Positions 14,246 through 23,484 of a stretch of 38,973 nucleotides of DNA are shown here, piece after piece. Numbering within the stretch: the first letter of the stretch is position 1; each line of letters begins with the position of its first letter. Below the pieces are notes generated by a model. That model saw nothing but the letters and a program-made list of their open reading frames with translations. It was not told the DNA's origin and ran no database searches. Where the stretch lies: IMG/VR virus record IMGVR_UViG_3300035698_007534, positions 1 to 38,973 of that record, one strand, 5' to 3'. Source of the stretch: a virus. A program made the position numbers and the translations under genes.

Positions 14246-14725
14246 TTACCCTAAATCCTTTTCATTTTCTGCTTTTTCCCAAAGATTTCTCAATCTGGTT
14301 TGTTTCCCATCTCCCTCAGATTTCATTCTAGCGAAAACCTCACAACCTTCTGGTGAGCTTGGTTCATATATTTTAATATCACCGCACGAAGCATCAAAGT
14401 GAGTCGGGAAGGTCATTCCATCCGCTCCAAATCGATTTTTCATAATATGAGATCTTGCAGTATCCTTCCGTTTGTCCTCGACTCGTCTACTCAATGACAT
14501 AATAAAATCAGATGTCATTACTTTTCTATATGAATCAGCAACACCATCCGCTTCAATAATTTCTGAAACTGCTGAACTGTTGTGAGTATAAATATCATTA
14601 GCAAAAAACATATGAATGTCATCAACCATTATATCTAAGGTTTTTCTGTCTCCCAATAATTCAATAGATTCAATTTCATCCAATTCAAACTCATTATTGT
14701 CTAATTTATGTTCTTTTATGACCAT
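14246..14725 (-). CDS. 41: gp41-like helicase C-terminal ORF: C-intein plus C-extein
   Basis: Residues 1-49 are a C-terminal split-intein fragment ending in FFANDIYTHN, the block F/G signature with penultimate H and final N, followed by +1 Ser. Residues 50-159 (SSAVSEIIEADG...) are the C-terminal end of the replicative DnaB-family helicase, with the SSAVSE sequence expected after the conserved Q-N-R. After trans-splicing with the N-terminal ORF at 15813-17147, it would give a helicase of about 464 residues (T4 gp41 has 475). The Vsr-like endonuclease gene lies between the halves and overlaps this ORF by 10 bases. C-intein length and sequence style match the gp41-1/gp41-8 split inteins. Confidence 0.9.
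   Translation of the reverse strand: MVIKEHKLDNNEFELDEIESIELLGDRKTLDIMVDDIHMFFANDIYTHNSSAVSEIIEADGVADSYRKVMTSDFIMSLSRRVEDKRKDTARSHIMKNRFGADGMTFPTHFDASCGDIKIYEPSSPEGCEVFARMKSEGDGKQTRLRNLWEKAENEKDLG
14579..14725 (-). other. Split intein C-fragment (gp41 helicase)
   Basis: Forty-nine residues ending in THN before SSAVSE. It complements the N-fragment at 15816-16085. Splicing junction: Q-G-N-R/Ser-Ser-Ala-Val. Confidence 0.9.
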
Positions 14726-15780
14726 TTATTTATATAATTTACACATTCATTTAATACTTCATCAGCATTTTTTCTATATTGTTTTTCTTTTATTCTAATA
14801 ACCCTATACCCTTTTGATTTTAAAAAATCATCTCGTGATCTATCATTTTGTTGTCGTTCCATAGATTTATGCCAATAATCTCCATCAAATTCTATTATAA
14901 CATTCCCACATTTAAAATCAACATAAATTATTTGTGTGTTTATATTCGGAACATGATCAACTATAAATTTTTCTTCGCCAGTTAATGTATAATATTTTAC
15001 CATACTTTTATAGTCATCTGACAATATATCATAAATTTTATCGAAAAGTTCTTGGGAAATTTTACTATATGATTTGCTTTTTCCGCGACAATTTTGAATC
15101 ATTTTATCTATATGTTTAAAATATTTTTCTCTTCCCAACGTATATCCAAATCGATCAACAAATCCATCTAAAGATAATGTATATTTTCTTTTATCTATTG
15201 GTTTTTTCCATCTATTATATCCATCTTTAATTCCATATTTTTGTTGATATTCACGTAATGATCTACCATTTTTCCATCCTTGCTTTTTCTTTTGTTCAAT
15301 TCCGCGTTTCCACTTAGAAATATACGAATTCCAATGTTTAGTTCCTTCTTTTTTCCCATATTTCTCAATATATCCAGTCAATCCCAAATTACTTATTTTA
15401 GACAAATTTAATTTTTCCCAATAACCATATCCATGTTTTTCTATACATTTTTTTTCAGTCAAGGCTACAGATTTTTGTCTTTTTTTAAATAATTTATTTC
15501 CAAGAAAATCACCATATTTCAATATCAACCCATTCAATGAACAAGAATCATTTTTTAAACAATTACTTCGGCCGAACAATTCAACCCAACAATGTTCACT
15601 AACATCATTTATTATCAATGTTTTAAGCATACAATATTTTTTATTAGTTAATGTATTTTTATCATAAATTTTATATAACTTACATAAATTTCTACAAACA
15701 TTCCATGTAAAATATGTATTTAATTCTTTCATGTTTTTTCTTGATAAAAAATGACTAAGCGATTTAAAATATAGTTCCAT
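14716..15780 (-). CDS. Homing endonuclease with C-terminal Vsr-like (EDxHD) domain, in the gp41 intein gap
   Basis: The C-terminal 70 residues form a Vsr/PD-(D/E)XK-like nuclease: IIEFDGDYWH (the E..D.WH signature of the EDxHD family) with a following acidic D. The N-terminal two thirds is highly basic and carries four similar repeats of the form Y.xxYGxxxGxxxW, probably DNA-binding modules. The gene sits between the two halves of the split gp41, the fractured-gene arrangement described by Dassa and colleagues in 2009. I take ATG 15780 as start because a late-class ATATTTATT lies at -12 to -4; an ATG at 15816 overlapping the upstream TGA is the alternative. It presumably cuts intein-less gp41 alleles. 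Confidence 0.85.
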   Translation of the reverse strand: MELYFKSLSHFLSRKNMKELNTYFTWNVCRNLCKLYKIYDKNTLTNKKYCMLKTLIINDVSEHCWVELFGRSNCLKNDSCSLNGLILKYGDFLGNKLFKKRQKSVALTEKKCIEKHGYGYWEKLNLSKISNLGLTGYIEKYGKKEGTKHWNSYISKWKRGIEQKKKQGWKNGRSLREYQQKYGIKDGYNRWKKPIDKRKYTLSLDGFVDRFGYTLGREKYFKHIDKMIQNCRGKSKSYSKISQELFDKIYDILSDDYKSMVKYYTLTGEEKFIVDHVPNINTQIIYVDFKCGNVIIEFDGDYWHKSMERQQNDRSRDDFLKSKGYRVIRIKEKQYRKNADEVLNECVNYINKWS

Positions 15781-15783
15781 ATC

Positions 15784-15792
15784 AATAAATAT
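15784..15792 (-). promoter_or_regulatory. Late-class promoter element for the gp41-gap endonuclease
   Basis: ATATTTATT at -12 to -4 of ATG 15780, inside the first codons of the longer alternative frame. Confidence 0.45.
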
Positions 15793-15812
15793 GGACAGCA
15801 TCACAAAAATCT

Positions 15813-17147
15813 TCACTTTTTTGTAAATAATTTATCTCCAATCCCTAAACCGCTTTCAATTGATTTCATTTTTCCATATTTTGTTGGAAAACGATGTTCA
15901 GACGAAACATCTATAAATTTACCACTTTTTAATTTTATTCTATATACAGGTTTTTTTTCTTGTGGGAAAATATTAGTTACAATTTTATATCCTGCGTGAG
16001 TTAATATTTTATCCCCAACCACCAAATCTTTGATTTTTATATTTTTCTTATTTTGTTCACAAACAACAGTTTCCAAACAGAGACATCGATTTCCCTGCGA
16101 TGCAGTCCAAATTGGAATCTCAAGCTCTCCAGCAATTCCTCGGAGTTCTTCATAAATATTTCCCGCATCAGTATAAGTGTCACCACCTTTTCCATATACC
16201 ATTGGCCGAAGAATGTCAGCATAATCTACAATAAGCAAATCAACTTTCTGATTAGTTAATAACTGAATTCGTTCAACATAAGTTTTCAAAGTTAAAGCGG
16301 TTGCGGCTTTTACAGGGAAATATTTAATCTTTAAAAATGATTCAATATCTTTAAGAGCATGAACCACATCCTCTTTGTGATCAGCAATATCTTGAAAATT
16401 TACTCCTGTAAAACAACAATCGTAACGGCGACCAACATATTTCTGCATCAACTCCAATGAAAAATGGATTACATTTCGTTTCTGTTTTAATGCTTCGGTT
16501 CCAAGTCTAGTTAAAAACCACGACTTTCCAGAACCAGCAGCTCCGACTACAACCCCAAGTTCTCCAGGTCCTAATCCACCATCCATCAATGAATCAATAC
16601 ATTCAAAATTAGTAGGAATAGCATCTCTACAATCATCACTTAATCGTTCATCGATTCCTGTTAAATAATCATGACCATCGTTTTTCTCCATCCCAGCTTT
16701 TGAGGCATCATCGATTATAACTTTAATTTCTTCATATGCTCCAAGCTTCAAAAGATCAGCGGATTTAAAAATGGCTCCTTTAAGATTCTGATTTATACAG
16801 AACTCTAAAAATTCCTCTTTAATATACTTTAAGTCTTCCGCCTCTAACTTTTGATGAATAATTTTTAAACTATTTATAATATCTTCTTCAAAAGTTTTAT
16901 TTTCTAATTCTTCGATCTTATGCTTAAAAACATCTAAAGTGGGAAGGGTTTTGTATTTTATATAATATTCACAAATTATTTTAACAATCCACTTATTGGA
17001 TTCGGAATCAAAAAAATCATCATGAACAATATCAAATACTCGATCAAGAAATTCTTTATCAAATAAAAGAGCAGCTATACACTTACTCTGAAATGATGCG
17101 CCAAATTTCTTTAAAGTATCGATTACATCTGTGTTCAAATCTGTCAT
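15813..17147 (-). CDS. 41: gp41-like replicative helicase N-terminal ORF: N-extein plus N-intein
   Basis: Residues 1-354 are the N-terminal part of a DnaB/gp41-type hexameric helicase: the N-terminal helical domain, Walker A GAAGSGKSW (about 203-211) and Walker B LLIVDYADIL, then TASQGNR, the point where the intein begins. Residues 355-444 are a classic N-intein (starts CLCLETVV, block B SEHRFPT), ending in TGA; the last four bases overlap the alternative endonuclease start (ATGA). The C-half is at 14246-14725. The helicase unwinds DNA at the replication fork with the primase. Insertion after Q-N-R matches the gp41-8 intein site. ATG 17147 lies 25 bases after the flap exonuclease stop, so it is probably co-transcribed with it. 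Confidence 0.9.
   Translation of the reverse strand: MTDLNTDVIDTLKKFGASFQSKCIAALLFDKEFLDRVFDIVHDDFFDSESNKWIVKIICEYYIKYKTLPTLDVFKHKIEELENKTFEEDIINSLKIIHQKLEAEDLKYIKEEFLEFCINQNLKGAIFKSADLLKLGAYEEIKVIIDDASKAGMEKNDGHDYLTGIDERLSDDCRDAIPTNFECIDSLMDGGLGPGELGVVVGAAGSGKSWFLTRLGTEALKQKRNVIHFSLELMQKYVGRRYDCCFTGVNFQDIADHKEDVVHALKDIESFLKIKYFPVKAATALTLKTYVERIQLLTNQKVDLLIVDYADILRPMVYGKGGDTYTDAGNIYEELRGIAGELEIPIWTASQGNRCLCLETVVCEQNKKNIKIKDLVVGDKILTHAGYKIVTNIFPQEKKPVYRIKLKSGKFIDVSSEHRFPTKYGKMKSIESGLGIGDKLFTKK
15816..16085 (-). other. Split intein N-fragment (gp41 helicase)
   Basis: Ninety residues beginning with Cys (block A), with SSEHRFPT as block B, ending at the ORF stop. It resembles the gp41-1 and gp41-8 N-inteins in length and sequence style. 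Confidence 0.9.
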
Positions 17148-18303: not shown

Positions 18304-19491
18304 TCAACTATTTTCATTCAATAATTTTACCAAATATTGTATTTTGGATTCAGTAAGCTTCGTATGTAATCCAACATAGAATGCCTGATCATGCAAAATA
18401 AGTGAATTTGGAAAATCACCTATATTTTTAAAATATTTCTCATAACAAGTCTGATATCCCAAAAATCCGGAAATAAGCGGTCTAGTTTCTATACTATTAT
18501 TTTCAAGTAATCTTTTTAGTTTATCCCGTTTCTGTTTTGTCTTACATATAACCGGCAACCCAAATGGAACATCTTTATAGAGTTCCCGACTTTCAGGCAA
18601 GAAAAATTCATTATTCAAATTTTCTTTGAAAATCCTATATAAATAAGATCGTTTTTTTGAATATCCAATAATCCGTTTAAAATCCAGACGCCCTATCAAC
18701 GCATGTATTTCAGAATTTCTATAATTCGATCCTAAACAATAAAAATCAAAAGACGAATCTACTTTACTATTTTGATATTCATATATTTGTGATGCTGGCA
18801 ATGACCTAACCAATCCGTGGTTTCTACGCATTAAAAATTGTTTATATTCTTCTTCATCATTAGTGAAAACAAATCCGCCTTCAATACTTTGAATTTGATG
18901 TCCAAAATATGTAGATGTAGTCGAAGTAAAAAATGAAGATATATTTATTCCCAAATATTCCCCAAATATATTTTCACAATTATCCATCATGATTTTTACA
19001 TTGTATTCTTTACCAAGATCAATTAATTTCTGTATATCAGGTGTAAATCCTAACAATGATGTAACAAATACACAAGCAACCTCATTTGCATCTGTTTTAA
19101 GAAACTGTTCAAGCTTTTTTAAATCAATCGAAAGATCATGCATGCTGATATCAATAAACTGGGGCTTGAATCCCTCACGAATCCATGGCACACAACTTGT
19201 CTGCCAAGTTATTGACGGTAAAACTACAACATTTCTATAATCCCCAACTCCGTCTCTAATCATTCCAGCCAACATAGTATTAGCAGATGATCCACTATTC
19301 ACAAACACGGCATATTCAGAACCAACATATTTAGCAAATTCCATTTCGAATTTTCGAACATGCGATCCCATCGTCCATCTATGATCGCGGAGAAAAAACA
19401 TGGCGAGCTTTAATTTATCTCGCCACGTAAAATTCGATACATTTAATGGCCAAGAATATTTATTCATCCTCGGTTTCATAAATAAGTTCAT
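18304..19491 (-). CDS. DegT/DnrJ-type PLP enzyme with His in place of the catalytic Lys
   Basis: The 395-residue protein is a fold type I sugar aminotransferase of the DegT/DnrJ/EryC1/StrS family: FVNSGSSANTM (PLP phosphate loop), DNCENIFGEY (Asp that binds the pyridine nitrogen), and STYFGHQIQSIEGGFV, where the Schiff-base Lys is normally six residues before the conserved E. Here that position is His, as in ColD and RfbH-type 3-dehydratases, so the enzyme more likely removes a hydroxyl than transfers an amine. It could make a deoxysugar donor for the two glycosyltransferases of this phage. It overlaps the end of the UvsX C-terminal ORF by 32 bases. The start at 19491 is uncertain; ATG 19467 would remove eight residues. 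Confidence 0.8.
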   Translation of the reverse strand: MNLFMKPRMNKYSWPLNVSNFTWRDKLKLAMFFLRDHRWTMGSHVRKFEMEFAKYVGSEYAVFVNSGSSANTMLAGMIRDGVGDYRNVVVLPSITWQTSCVPWIREGFKPQFIDISMHDLSIDLKKLEQFLKTDANEVACVFVTSLLGFTPDIQKLIDLGKEYNVKIMMDNCENIFGEYLGINISSFFTSTTSTYFGHQIQSIEGGFVFTNDEEEYKQFLMRRNHGLVRSLPASQIYEYQNSKVDSSFDFYCLGSNYRNSEIHALIGRLDFKRIIGYSKKRSYLYRIFKENLNNEFFLPESRELYKDVPFGLPVICKTKQKRDKLKRLLENNSIETRPLISGFLGYQTCYEKYFKNIGDFPNSLILHDQAFYVGLHTKLTESKIQYLVKLLNENS

Positions 19492-20338
19492 CTGGTGAAC
19501 ATTCCGATTGATCTTTATAAATCATTATTTTAGCTTTACAAATTTTTTCATAAAGTTCTTGTTTGAGATCCGGAGTTGCTGTGAGGATCTTTATAAAATT
19601 AGCTTTGTTAAATTCATATGTTTTGCCATTCAATGCTAAAAACTGAATCTTTTTTCCTAAACCTGGACACTCAACTAAATCCTTCAAAGCATCAGGATCT
19701 TTTTCCAACAACTTCGCTTTTGCATCTTTAGTTTTTGCAGCTTTTGTAATTTTTTCGTCCTGGAGAGTATTAAACCAACTTCCGTAATTATCCATACCAC
19801 GATCAAAAAACAAATCAAATTCCGCCTTGCGCATTGGAGGACCAAGGCGATTTTTGATGACCTTAGCAACCGATTTAAACCCAATAATATTTCCGCGAGT
19901 ATCTTTAATCTGACTGATCTTTGACATTCTAATTCTGATCGATGAGTGAAATGCCATAGCTTTACCCCCACTAGTCGTATTGTGATTGAGTCTACCATTT
20001 GCAATATATCGTTCACCTTCCACTTCTATATCACATACTTTCATACTTGAATCCACCCTTCTAAAGTCGGGATGATCTTCCAAAAATATCTCAGTGTCAT
20101 TTTCAATAACTCTATGTTTATTCGTGCCATTTAGTTTTCCATCTGTGTAATGATGATTGACCGACTCTTTTACCAAAAAAGATTTTATTAGTTTAAATCC
20201 TTCCACAGACTCAACTTCTATACCCAGATCTGTTATATCATATACACGTGGAGTGGAGAAGTTTTCGTTGTTTAAAAACCTCTTGGAGAATTCATATAAA
20301 GAAATTTCTTCTTCTATATATTCATTTACTGTATTCAT
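19460..20338 (-). CDS. uvsX: UvsX C-terminal ORF: C-intein plus C-extein
   Basis: Residues 1-120 are a C-terminal split-intein fragment: block B-like GTNKHRVI (71-78), then block F/G ANGRLNHN with final N. Residue 121 (+1) is Thr, opening TTSGGKAMAFHSS, the RecA/UvsX segment after the ATPase core (DNA-binding loop 2 region). The remaining 172 residues are UvsX C-terminal. It has a good Shine-Dalgarno (AAAGGA, seven bases before ATG), lying inside the end of the endonuclease gene, so it is translated from that transcript. The N-part of this intein is only about 15 residues in the other ORF. Spliced UvsX would be about 404 residues (T4: 391). Confidence 0.85.
   Translation of the reverse strand: MNTVNEYIEEEISLYEFSKRFLNNENFSTPRVYDITDLGIEVESVEGFKLIKSFLVKESVNHHYTDGKLNGTNKHRVIENDTEIFLEDHPDFRRVDSSMKVCDIEVEGERYIANGRLNHNTTSGGKAMAFHSSIRIRMSKISQIKDTRGNIIGFKSVAKVIKNRLGPPMRKAEFDLFFDRGMDNYGSWFNTLQDEKITKAAKTKDAKAKLLEKDPDALKDLVECPGLGKKIQFLALNGKTYEFNKANFIKILTATPDLKQELYEKICKAKIMIYKDQSECSPDELIYETEDE
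19979..20338 (-). other. Split intein C-fragment (UvsX), unusually long
   Basis: About 120 residues containing block B and the terminal LNHN. Together with the 15-residue N-fragment at 21454-21498 it gives an atypically split intein (N-part short, C-part long), like those of VidaL or AceL-TerL type. Confidence 0.82.
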
Positions 20339-21419
20339 TAATTATTCCTTTTATCATTGTTAAATTATTTATTATATCACCTTCCCAAAAATTTAAAAAA
20401 ACAAATCCATTTTCACGAAAGTCTTCTTTCCGTCTTTTGTCCCGTTCCCAAACTGTTTTTGCTTCAATTGTTTTGTGTGTGGTATCCGTGGCATTAAAAA
20501 GTTTCGGATTAGCATGCCAAAAGTCACCGTAACATTCTATTATCATATTAAGTGATTCCACATAAAAATCAGGCAAATATGTATTTTTAAAAAACGAAAA
20601 AACCTTTTCATATTTCCATTTGAGATTGAGATCATTCAATAATTGTGCTATTTCATATTCAATCCGATTCATTTTTATCCCCCCCACATCATAGTTTTTC
20701 CCTTTAGCGGAATTGACCATCTTATAATACAAATCTTTGTCATAAATCCTAGCACGTTCCCACATTTTCTTCGATGATATTGATATTTTTTTAATTCTAT
20801 CAGGGGATCGCATTAACTCACCAAATCGTTTTTTAAAATCTAAATCATTATTATGCAAATCGTGCAACTTTTCAGACACATTTTTATAATGACCCGTTGA
20901 TTTCCGTCGATCCATCTCATCCCGTTTCCAGCCATCATTCTTCCAAAGACCCCTATTTATCTCAGCAGTTATAGGAACCCACTTATCATTTCGCTTTTTC
21001 AATTTCTTTTTTGTTTCTAACCCCTCTGCGGAAGAATAATGATCAATTAATCCTTTAGAATTGTTTATATGCATCGTCTCCAATTGAAATAATATTCGAT
21101 TTTTAATATTATTTTCAATTTCAAAATTCGAAATGTACCAGTTATAGAGTCTATACATCGTATAAAGTTTCTTTCTCAAATTATAAAGCAACTCTATTTC
21201 ATCATCCCAACCAAAATAGTAATCATAATATTCCTTGTTCGCAGGTGTAAAAGGTTGTTTGCTATTGTTAATACCCTTTGTTTTAAATAGGGTGGCCTTT
21301 CCGGCTATGAAATGTTTTTTAATTGATAACTTTATTTTAATTCTACATTTATGTTCATAATGATGAACATCAAAATATTTTAATATTAAGTCCGTTTCTT
21401 CCTGTTGTAGTGTATTCAT
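20322..21419 (-). CDS. Homing endonuclease with C-terminal Vsr-like domain, in the UvsX intein gap
   Basis: The 365-residue protein ends in a Vsr/EDxHD-type nuclease: YLPDFYV (281-287), IIECYGDFWHANP (293-305) and WERDKRRKEDF (324-334). This matches the endonuclease in the gp41 gap in motif order but differs in detail. The middle (about 180-250) has SxxS.K.xW-type and KxxxS segments like NUMOD-type DNA-binding modules. The N-terminal 100 residues are basic and unfamiliar. It occupies the gap between the halves of UvsX and presumably cuts uninterrupted uvsX alleles. A late-class ATACTTATC lies at -12 to -4 of its ATG. Its end overlaps the C-intein ORF by 17 bases. Confidence 0.83.
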   Translation of the reverse strand: MNTLQQEETDLILKYFDVHHYEHKCRIKIKLSIKKHFIAGKATLFKTKGINNSKQPFTPANKEYYDYYFGWDDEIELLYNLRKKLYTMYRLYNWYISNFEIENNIKNRILFQLETMHINNSKGLIDHYSSAEGLETKKKLKKRNDKWVPITAEINRGLWKNDGWKRDEMDRRKSTGHYKNVSEKLHDLHNNDLDFKKRFGELMRSPDRIKKISISSKKMWERARIYDKDLYYKMVNSAKGKNYDVGGIKMNRIEYEIAQLLNDLNLKWKYEKVFSFFKNTYLPDFYVESLNMIIECYGDFWHANPKLFNATDTTHKTIEAKTVWERDKRRKEDFRENGFVFLNFWEGDIINNLTMIKGIINEYSK

Positions 21420-21422
21420 ATA

Positions 21423-21431
21423 GATAAGTAT
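21423..21431 (-). promoter_or_regulatory. Late-class promoter-like element for the UvsX-gap endonuclease
   Basis: ATACTTATC at -12 to -4 of ATG 21419, a two-mismatch variant of the ATATTTATA element. Confidence 0.4.
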
Positions 21432-21450
21432 ACAACAACTGGAGAAAAAA

Positions 21451-22602
21451 TTACACTTTATATCGTATTTTAATTTTTGTTGTAAATGGATCTACACACC
21501 ATTTATCGCCAAAAATTGCACCTATTTTCTGTCTAAGCTGATTAGTGAAAATCAAACAAATTCGTTGACGAGAAATCATTTGGGTAATCTTTCTTAAAGC
21601 CTTAGAAATAATGATAGCTTTCTGTGTAGCGTAACCTTGAGTTCCATGATCCGCCTCCAACTCTGCCATACATGAAGCAGCTGACACAGAATCAACTACA
21701 ATGGTCAATAGCCTATCTTTGTTAGCTAATCTGACCTTTGCTATCAATTCCTCTATATTATCAAATATTTCTTCTACATGGTCACATTCCAACAAAAGAA
21801 GTTTATGAGAATTTACTCCAATTGCTTCAACGAAATTAATATCCAAAGATGATTCTGTATCAATGAACACAGCTACACCACCTTTCTTTTGGGTTTCTGC
21901 AAGAGCATGCATTGCTAATAGAGTTTTCCCAGAATTATGATTAAGCATACCATTTCCAAAATAACAATGTTCAGGATGATCTACCGTTATATCAACTATT
22001 TTAAAATCTCCAATATAACTAATTGATTTTATTAAATCATAGTCGCCATTGTCACACAAAACAGAATGTGTTTTCGGTTTCAAATTTTCACACATTACCC
22101 AACCGACATTTGTAAAAAATTTATGTTCTTTAGATACTTTTATACATTGTCCAGTTATCAATGTAACTAAATATGTCTTCAAAATACCTTTGTCAATATA
22201 TTTTGATATGTTGGTATATTCGCCGTTCAATGTTCTAACGGAAACAGTTTTTCCGTCTCGAAGTAATTTTTCAACTTCTTTAATTTTTATTTTGGTTGGA
22301 TTATCTATTATAACATCGATTTCCGTATCTTCCGTGACGCATCCCTCAAGTCCGGTAATCTCAGTTATTCTACCAACAGGATAACCACCATTTGGTCTAT
22401 TAGCCATTGCTAAATCTAACGCATCGTTTCCACTTGGAACCCAATCAATAATTTTTGATGGATCATCATTGGATTCATCACCAAGAATAAATGCTACATT
22501 CACGCCATTTTTGGCGGATTTATTTATAATTGCGGCTAATTCATTTACTAATTTGTCAGAATCACCATCAGCATCATATTCAACTTTTTTACTTTTTGCC
22601 AT
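21451..22602 (-). CDS. uvsX: UvsX recombinase N-terminal ORF with P-loop mini-intein and start of a second, split intein
   Basis: Residues 1-87 and 224-368 are UvsX/RecA-like. The P-loop reads ITGLEG then, after the intein, SGKTLL, so the mini-intein interrupts Walker A between G and S. Walker B is LLTIVVDSVSAAS; FTNQLRQK follows. Residues 88-223 (136 residues) are a contiguous mini-intein: CVTEDTEIDV, block B KEHKFFT, and a terminal GMLNHN with no endonuclease domain. Residues 369-383 (CVDPFTTKIKIRYKV) begin a second intein and are cut by TAA. The C-half is at 19460-20338. UvsX catalyses strand exchange in recombination-dependent replication. Upstream lies the gp32 terminator, with no clear own promoter. 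Confidence 0.9.
   Translation of the reverse strand: MAKSKKVEYDADGDSDKLVNELAAIINKSAKNGVNVAFILGDESNDDPSKIIDWVPSGNDALDLAMANRPNGGYPVGRITEITGLEGCVTEDTEIDVIIDNPTKIKIKEVEKLLRDGKTVSVRTLNGEYTNISKYIDKGILKTYLVTLITGQCIKVSKEHKFFTNVGWVMCENLKPKTHSVLCDNGDYDLIKSISYIGDFKIVDITVDHPEHCYFGNGMLNHNSGKTLLAMHALAETQKKGGVAVFIDTESSLDINFVEAIGVNSHKLLLLECDHVEEIFDNIEELIAKVRLANKDRLLTIVVDSVSAASCMAELEADHGTQGYATQKAIIISKALRKITQMISRQRICLIFTNQLRQKIGAIFGDKWCVDPFTTKIKIRYKV
21454..21498 (-). other. Split intein N-fragment of UvsX, only 15 residues
   Basis: CVDPFTTKIKIRYKV directly follows FGDKW and ends at TAA. The block A form (C-x-D-P-x-T) supports an intein start. Confidence 0.75.
21934..22341 (-). other. Contiguous mini-intein in the UvsX P-loop
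   Basis: 136 residues, Cys1, penultimate His and final Asn, +1 Ser, with no homing endonuclease domain. It sits inside Walker A, so UvsX is inactive until spliced. Confidence 0.9.
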
Positions 22603-22626
22603 AAACTCTTTCTTTGAAGATTTAAT

Positions 22627-22659
22627 AAAAAAAGGGTATGGAGTGATTGCTCCATACCC
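22627..22659 (-). terminator. Rho-independent terminator after gp32
   Basis: A perfect 10-bp stem, GGGTATGGAG (22634-22643) and its complement (22650-22659), with a 6-base loop, followed on the minus strand by a run of T (22633-22627). It separates gp32 from UvsX, so UvsX must depend on read-through or an unseen promoter. Confidence 0.92.
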
Positions 22660-22689
22660 CTTGTGCGTTTTAATTAAAAACGAATAAAA

Positions 22690-23484
22690 TTACGTCTTGA
22701 ATAACCTATCGAAATCAGCTACTTTAGCAGTTTTTGGAGCTGCTTCTTTTTCAGCAACCGACTCAGATTTAGCAACATCATCTGCTACTTCTTTAGAAGC
22801 CGGAACACTGGTTTCAGGTTCTCCGGAACCAGGTTCATCATCTTCAGGATTTAAGTATTTCCTAAGAGCTTCGCTCAACTCATCAAATGAAGGTTCGTCA
22901 AAGATATCTGTAATATCAGGTTGATTTCGAATGGCCTCAATTAATTCATCACCTCCAACTGGTGTTTTTATCGGACGCGGAAGAATTTCAGTCTCAGGAA
23001 ATGATTTTCCTGTTTCTTCTTTTGGCTTATAATGAACGATAATATCATTACCATTATCCAAACTTGTGATATCACCATAATCTTCGTTTGCGGCAATTCC
23101 AAGAAGAGCTTGATAGACTTGTTTTCCAAAGCCCCAAAATCTTACACCTTGATCTTCTTCACCACGAACAATGACAGGAGCATAGACTCTTAACTTTGGG
23201 AATAATCCCATAGCAATTTTAAAATCATCTTTATCTCCGCTGCCTTTCACTTTATTAGCGAAGTCAACCACAGGATCTTTATGTCCATAAGTAGAAGGAG
23301 ACAAATAAGTTCTCCCACCTAAGTTATAGTGAAACTTTAATTCCACAAAGGGATTTTCCGGATCTTTTTTATACGGGACAAGCCGCACAGTTTGTTTACC
23401 ACTTGACGGTTTCCAGAGCATATTGCTCCGTTTATTTTTGCTTGTTATTTCACCCAAGCGCTTTCGCAATGCATCTATATTCAT
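22690..23484 (-). CDS. 32: gp32-like single-stranded DNA-binding protein
   Basis: The 264-residue protein has the layout of T4 gp32: a basic N-terminal cooperativity region (MNIDALRKRLGEI), an OB-fold core (VRLVPYKKDPENPFVELKFHYNLG read in two parts: VRLVPYKKD and FVELKFHYN), FWGFGKQVYQAL, and an acidic C-terminal tail ending DFDRLFKT. It protects single-stranded DNA and recruits replication proteins. There is no cysteine at all, so the T4 zinc site is absent, as in several T4-like phages of marine origin. It has tandem late- and early-class promoters, a Shine-Dalgarno (GAGGA, 9 bases before ATG), and its own terminator. Confidence 0.85.
   Translation of the reverse strand: MNIDALRKRLGEITSKNKRSNMLWKPSSGKQTVRLVPYKKDPENPFVELKFHYNLGGRTYLSPSTYGHKDPVVDFANKVKGSGDKDDFKIAMGLFPKLRVYAPVIVRGEEDQGVRFWGFGKQVYQALLGIAANEDYGDITSLDNGNDIIVHYKPKEETGKSFPETEILPRPIKTPVGGDELIEAIRNQPDITDIFDEPSFDELSEALRKYLNPEDDEPGSGEPETSVPASKEVADDVAKSESVAEKEAAPKTAKVADFDRLFKT

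What the first reader, a model, noticed from the sequence alone, without database searches (positions are those of the whole stretch)
19460..22602. UvsX recombinase is split by an atypical intein (15-residue N-part) with a homing endonuclease in the gap
After FGDKW the N-terminal ORF adds only CVDPFTTKIKIRYKV and stops. The missing intein body with block B and LNHN begins a second ORF 1.1 kb on, followed by +1 Thr and UvsX sequence TTSGG. Between them lies a Vsr-like endonuclease gene. Short-N, long-C split inteins are rare in nature, and here the split enzyme is essential for recombination-dependent replication.
Basis: partly seen in the sequence, partly recalled or inferred. Interest (0 to 1): 0.92.

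Follow-up and report, generated by a model that had tools for sequence, protein, structure and literature searches.

The report
Split intein in a phage recombinase
A phage's DNA-recombination enzyme (UvsX) is encoded in two separate genes that must be stitched together by a protein-splicing element cut only 15 residues from its start, with a DNA-cutting mobile gene in the gap; the arrangement is a known kind, but its relatives show the same element whole, split, split with the nuclease decayed, or absent at the same spot.

Summary
On the minus strand the uvsX N-gene ends FGDKW|CVDPFTTKIKIRYKV*. A Vsr-like endonuclease gene follows. A second gene then supplies the other 120 intein residues (block B TxxH, block F D, LNHN) and +1 Thr with TTSGG. 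I found the same arrangement in about 20 further IMG/VR contigs. About 70 sampled contigs have an empty FGDxW|TTSGG site, and 8 carry the same intein as one continuous protein. That excludes an assembly error and fixes both splice junctions. AlphaFold of a contiguous homologue gives an intein (Hint) fold, with the split in the turn after strand 2 (the S1 position of VidaL and PolB16). The window endonuclease folds like Vsr and I-Bth0305I. The best reading is a naturally split class 1 intein joining UvsX in trans, with a homing endonuclease lodged in the break. Splicing and cutting are inferred, not shown. This is a new member of a known kind: fractured genes plus atypical short-IntN split inteins. 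New here are repeated contiguous/split changes at one site, split copies with only HEN remnants, and relatives whose UvsX is in three pieces.

The parts
22342..22602 (-). UvsX N-extein 1 (87 aa, up to GLEG in the Walker A loop)
   Evidence: Pfam RecA and PHROG UvsX-like matches to the ORF
21934..22341 (-). Second intein, contiguous (136 aa, C1...LNHN), in the P-loop GLEG|SGKT; homologue of the VidaL intein at the same insertion site
   Evidence: phmmer to VidaL 6vgv E 7e-6; VidaL chain ends ..VSHA|SGK; coordinates
21499..21933 (-). UvsX middle extein (145 aa, SGKT...FGDKW)
   Evidence: Pfam RecA 223-366
21454..21498 (-). Split intein N-part, 15 aa CVDPFTTKIKIRYKV, then stop codon 21451-21453
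   Evidence: identical residues in L001 although the flanking UvsX is 59% identical
20322..21419 (-). Vsr-like (EDxHD) homing endonuclease gene in the gap, 365 aa; its stop overlaps the start of the C-gene by 17 nt
   Evidence: NCBIfam vsr E 3e-6; AlphaFold domain 239-365 matches Vsr 1cw0 Z 12.6 and I-Bth0305I 3r3p Z 11.7; invariant PDF, ECxGDxWHAxP, D, WE
19979..20338 (-). Split intein C-part (120 aa): block B GTNKH, block F VCDIEV, block G LNHN; own start codon with AAAGGA upstream
   Evidence: profile hit to Spl DnaX mini-intein E 1.8e-4
19463..19978 (-). UvsX C-extein (172 aa), +1 Thr, TTSGGKAMAFH...
   Evidence: Pfam RecA profile positions 198-261, continuing the N-gene's match that ends at 198

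Best explanation
The uvsX gene of this phage is fractured. Two polypeptides are made: UvsX N-half (itself carrying a contiguous P-loop intein) with a 15-residue intein N-part, and a 120-residue intein C-part with the UvsX C-half. They associate. The 15-residue strand completes the intein fold, and a class 1 reaction (Cys1, block B His, block F Asp, penultimate His, terminal Asn, +1 Thr) joins FGDKW to TTSGG, restoring the loop that in RecA lies at the DNA-binding L2 region. The P-loop intein is removed in cis. The gene in the gap encodes a Vsr-like (EDxHD) homing endonuclease, most likely cutting the intein-free uvsX site so that the whole unit is copied into it. Shown here: the anatomy, homology, fold class, conservation and natural empty, contiguous and split states. 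Inferred: trans-splicing, cleavage and homing.
For: Anatomy. The RecA profile match ends at 198 in the N-gene and resumes at 198 in the C-gene. Empty sites FGDPW|TTSGG occur in about 70 relatives. Contiguous versions of the same intein occur at the same site in 8 distinct contigs (L098, L118/L123, L119/L124, L121, L127/L117, L129, L131, L132), e.g. L118 CVDPLSTKIKIRYKV-IEEEITL...LHHN|TTSGG. H (block B), D (block F), H-N and +1 T are invariant in 26 sequences, and Cys1 is present in every N-part and contiguous copy recovered. AlphaFold of L118 (pLDDT 91) gives the intein fold: Z 15.6 to PI-PfuI, 14.8 to NrdJ-1, 14.4 to VidaL; the split falls in the turn between strands 11-16 and 19-24. The HEN domain matches Vsr Z 12.6 and I-Bth0305I Z 11.7. 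dN/dS is about 0.05-0.13 for the intein C-part and 0.15-0.25 for the HEN in three pairs. No group I intron was found between the pieces.
Against: No splicing or cleavage experiment was possible. The split pair itself could not be folded as a two-chain complex; the model is of a contiguous homologue. Sequence similarity to solved inteins is weak (best E 1.8e-4; none for the window sequence alone). The HEN target is not known.
Confidence: 0.9

Rival explanations
1. Gene in pieces without splicing: the two halves of UvsX assemble non-covalently, as reported for split NrdA of phage Aeh1, and the intein remnants are dead.
For: Free-standing endonucleases split phage genes whose halves work without joining (PMC2988022).
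Against: Intein residues needed for splicing are invariant across 26 divergent sequences, the intein C-part is under purifying selection, and contiguous forms persist. The break lies in the FGDxW/TTSGG loop, where a 120-residue appendage should block DNA binding (inference from RecA).
Confidence: 0.05
2. The interruption is removed from RNA (group I intron) or bypassed by frameshifting, not by protein splicing.
For: A group I intron sits about 15 nt downstream at the same uvsX site in a relative (L088, 70.9 bits; L008 below the curated threshold).
Against: No Rfam match in window 19400-22700 beyond a chance-level one. Intein residues flank the gap on both sides, and contiguous relatives read straight through.
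Confidence: 0.02
3. Assembly error or frameshift artefact; the real gene is continuous.
For: The record is a metagenomic contig.
Against: About 20 other contigs, from many samples and as little as about 40% identical, show the same arrangement with an endonuclease gene of the same family.
Confidence: 0.01

Closest known systems
VidaL intein (PDB 6vgv/6vgw; Neugebauer 2017, named UvsX-2 from memory), atypical split intein with 16-aa IntN
   Same: Short IntN, S1 split after strand 2, Cys-dependent, same fold (Z 14.4); its chain ends ..SH|SGK, i.e. it sits in a P-loop, which fits a UvsX host.
   Different: VidaL corresponds to the window's other, contiguous P-loop intein (phmmer E 7e-6). The 15-aa split intein is at a different uvsX site with +1 Thr and no detectable direct sequence match to VidaL.
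Fractured genes of Dassa et al. 2009 (gp41-1, NrdJ-1 and others)
   Same: Host gene split at a split intein with a Vsr-like homing endonuclease in the gap. The window's own gp41-type helicase is such a gene (E 1e-20 to gp41-1).
   Different: Those are canonical splits (about 90-100 + 35-50 aa); here the split is 15 + 120 and in uvsX. The paper itself was not held.
PolB16 OarG split intein (Pasch 2023, PMC10189870)
   Same: IntN of exactly 15 aa at the S1 site.
   Different: Ser1/Ser+1, in PolB; the window's intein uses Cys1/Thr+1.
I-Bth0305I (PDB 3r3p), EDxHD homing endonuclease
   Same: Same catalytic fold (Z 11.7) and a recA-type host gene (from memory).
   Different: Encoded in a group I intron (PMC3943268), not in a split-intein gap; but in L008 a related endonuclease sits in such an intron next to the split intein.

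Membership tests
Class 1 intein (Hint fold) | Cys/Ser at position 1, block B TxxH, penultimate His and terminal Asn, Cys/Ser/Thr at +1 | tested here: met
   C1, TNKH, HN|T in the window; H, D, HN and +1 T invariant in 26 sequences; Cys1 in all recovered N-parts and contiguous copies
Class 1 intein (Hint fold) | Hint fold | tested here: met
   AlphaFold of contiguous homologue L118, Z 15.6 to PI-PfuI; the window's own pair was not folded
Class 1 intein (Hint fold) | Protein splicing activity | not testable with these tools
   needs expression
Atypical (S1) split intein | Natural split after strand 2, IntN 15-37 aa | tested here: met
   IntN 15 aa; contiguous homologue shows the cut in the turn between strands 11-16 and 19-24
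Fractured gene | Two host-gene halves flanking a Vsr-like endonuclease ORF | tested here: met
EDxHD (Vsr-like) homing endonuclease | Vsr-like catalytic domain with conserved E, D, H, D | tested here: met
   E295, D299, H302, D327 invariant in 12 rows; fold match
EDxHD (Vsr-like) homing endonuclease | Site-specific cleavage of the intein-less allele | not testable with these tools
   empty alleles exist; cleavage untested
VidaL-type P-loop intein (window 21934-22341) | Same insertion site GLEx|SGK and sequence similarity | tested here: met

The most novel reading that the evidence does not exclude
One intein at one site in phage uvsX has changed between contiguous and split forms several times, and several split copies retain only remnants of the endonuclease (or none), so that fracture is maintained without it. 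In some relatives a second intein is split as well (13-aa N-part), giving a recombinase assembled from three genes by two split inteins that must not cross-react. This is a natural series for testing how split inteins arise and whether the endonuclease breaks the gene or invades an existing break.
Probability: 0.6. Interest if true: 0.65.

Novelty: new member of a known kind. Interest (0 to 1): 0.5.

Why it matters
Short-IntN split inteins are sought for labelling and semisynthesis because the N-part can be made as a peptide. This family adds many natural 15-aa Cys1/Thr+1 pairs, and related contigs show a 13-aa N-part, shorter than the 15 aa called the shortest characterised (PMC10189870). Biologically, the coexistence of empty, contiguous, split-with-HEN and split-with-HEN-remnant alleles at one site makes the origin of split inteins testable.

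Tried and rejected
Direct phmmer of the window's split intein against the PDB gave nothing usable; the family profile and the structure model were needed. PHROG and NCBIfam gave no match for the contiguous intein L118. Rfam on the window region found no intron. The Dassa 2009, Taylor 2011 and Burton 2020 papers are not held, so features of those systems are from memory or from citing papers. I considered a single origin of all contiguous copies and rejected it by AU test (p 5e-9; 7e-44 without the three longest branches). A scan for Shine-Dalgarno sites before the C-gene was inconclusive across relatives: it found one in only 7 of 22 loci, the window among them.

Full report
CHECK. On the minus strand the N-gene (21451-22602) reads UvsX up to FGDKW, adds CVDPFTTKIKIRYKV and stops. 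After 31 nt an endonuclease gene begins (20322-21419). Its stop overlaps the start of the C-gene (19460-20338) by 17 nt. The C-gene encodes 120 residues ending LNHN and then TTSGGKAMAFH and the rest of UvsX. The RecA profile match stops at position 198 in the N-gene and resumes at 198 in the C-gene, so no host residue is lost. The window is a whole linear IMG/VR record of 38,973 bases.

A SECOND INTEIN IN THE SAME GENE. The N-gene also carries a contiguous 136-residue intein in the Walker A loop (21934-22341, GLEG|CVTEDT...LNHN|SGKT; Pfam, PDB and NCBIfam intein matches). Its closest atypical relative is VidaL (6vgv, E 7e-6), whose crystallised chain ends ..VSHA|SGK, i.e. the same P-loop site. 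So the well-known split VidaL has a contiguous cousin here, and the 15-residue split intein is a different intein at a second site.

RELATIVES. Searches of viral contigs gave three states at FGDxW|TTSGG. EMPTY: about 70 of 80 contigs nearest to the window's UvsX. CONTIGUOUS intein: 8 distinct contigs. SPLIT after about 15 residues: more than 20 distinct contigs. Most of the split ones have an endonuclease of the same family in the gap, whose end overlaps the C-gene region. In L118 the contiguous intein reads KIKIRYKV-IEEEITL; split forms read KIKIRYKV-stop ... M..YIEEEITL. This pins the break to one turn.

FOLD AND CONSERVATION. AlphaFold of the contiguous L118 intein (pLDDT 91, 26-row alignment) matches inteins throughout (Z 15.6 PI-PfuI, 14.8 NrdJ-1, 14.4 VidaL). 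The break lies in the turn between strands 11-16 and 19-24, the S1 site of VidaL and PolB16 (terminology from PMC13014065). His of block B, Asp of block F, HN and +1 Thr are invariant, and Cys1 is present in all recovered N-parts and contiguous copies. The window's endonuclease has a C-terminal Vsr-like domain (1cw0 Z 12.6; I-Bth0305I 3r3p Z 11.7) with invariant PDF, ECxGDxWHAxP, D and WE, behind a long helical part that is presumably DNA-binding. Substitution ratios show constraint on the intein C-part (dN/dS about 0.05-0.13) and on the endonuclease (0.15-0.25) in three pairs. Endonuclease and intein distances correlate (Mantel r 0.77), more than endonuclease and extein distances (0.63); this suggests, but does not prove, that they travel together.

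HISTORY. On the intein tree, contiguous and split copies are interleaved: at least 3 changes are forced by starred branches, 5-7 on the best trees, and a single contiguous clade is rejected (AU p 5e-9). L127 (contiguous) and L088 (split, no endonuclease) are sister rows (100/99), and L088's N-part keeps the residues that form the linker in L127. The tree is unrooted, so direction is not given by it. However, L105 keeps the start and the end of a deleted endonuclease between its split halves, and L115 and L116 keep only its last residues. There the endonuclease was lost and the split stayed. In L008 the halves abut (ATGA) and a related endonuclease sits instead in a group I-like intron a few codons downstream; L088 has a group I intron at the same place (70.9 bits). 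The site attracts two kinds of mobile element using related nucleases. L001, L106 and L091 have the P-loop intein split as well (13-aa N-part in L001 and L106; only its C-part was seen in L091), so their UvsX is encoded in three pieces.

MECHANISM. Most likely the two polypeptides splice in trans by the class 1 route and the gap gene is a homing endonuclease. Shown: anatomy, homology, fold class, conservation, natural allele states. Inferred: splicing, cleavage, homing, the need for spliced UvsX. That UvsX takes part in homing in T4 (PMC2988022) means the endonuclease may depend on the protein it interrupts; this is inference.

NOVELTY. Short-IntN split inteins (15-37 aa) and fractured genes with Vsr-like endonucleases are both established. 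In the held papers I found no description of this uvsX site, but the primary papers could not be read, so absence is not proof. I file it as a new member of a known kind, with unusual value as a natural series.

Noticed in passing
window 14246-17147 (-): A second fractured gene: gp41/DnaB-type helicase split by a canonical gp41-1-like intein (N-part about 90 aa after SQGNR, C-part ending THN before SSAV) with another endonuclease ORF (14716-15816) in the gap; the reconstituted intein matches gp41-1 at E 1e-20.
   Followed up: partly
L001/L004 and L106: The P-loop intein is split with a 13-residue N-part (CVTEDTKIKVIIE, CVTEDTIIKVIIE), with an endonuclease ORF in L001 and almost no gap in L106; shorter than published natural IntN records.
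   Followed up: partly
L008 6900-8070; L088 660-982: Group I intron just downstream of the intein C-junction in uvsX; in L008 it holds an endonuclease of the same family as the one in split-intein gaps.
   Followed up: partly
L121 2776-4089 (its - strand): A possible third intein site in uvsX only a few residues upstream (HN|TSFGDPY), next to a contiguous site-b intein.
   Followed up: no
window 18304-19491 (-): A DegT/DnrJ/EryC1-type aminotransferase gene directly follows uvsX-C and overlaps its end by 32 nt.
   Followed up: no
L086 gap between uvsX halves: The gap holds a short ORF without detectable similarity to the endonuclease family.
   Followed up: no
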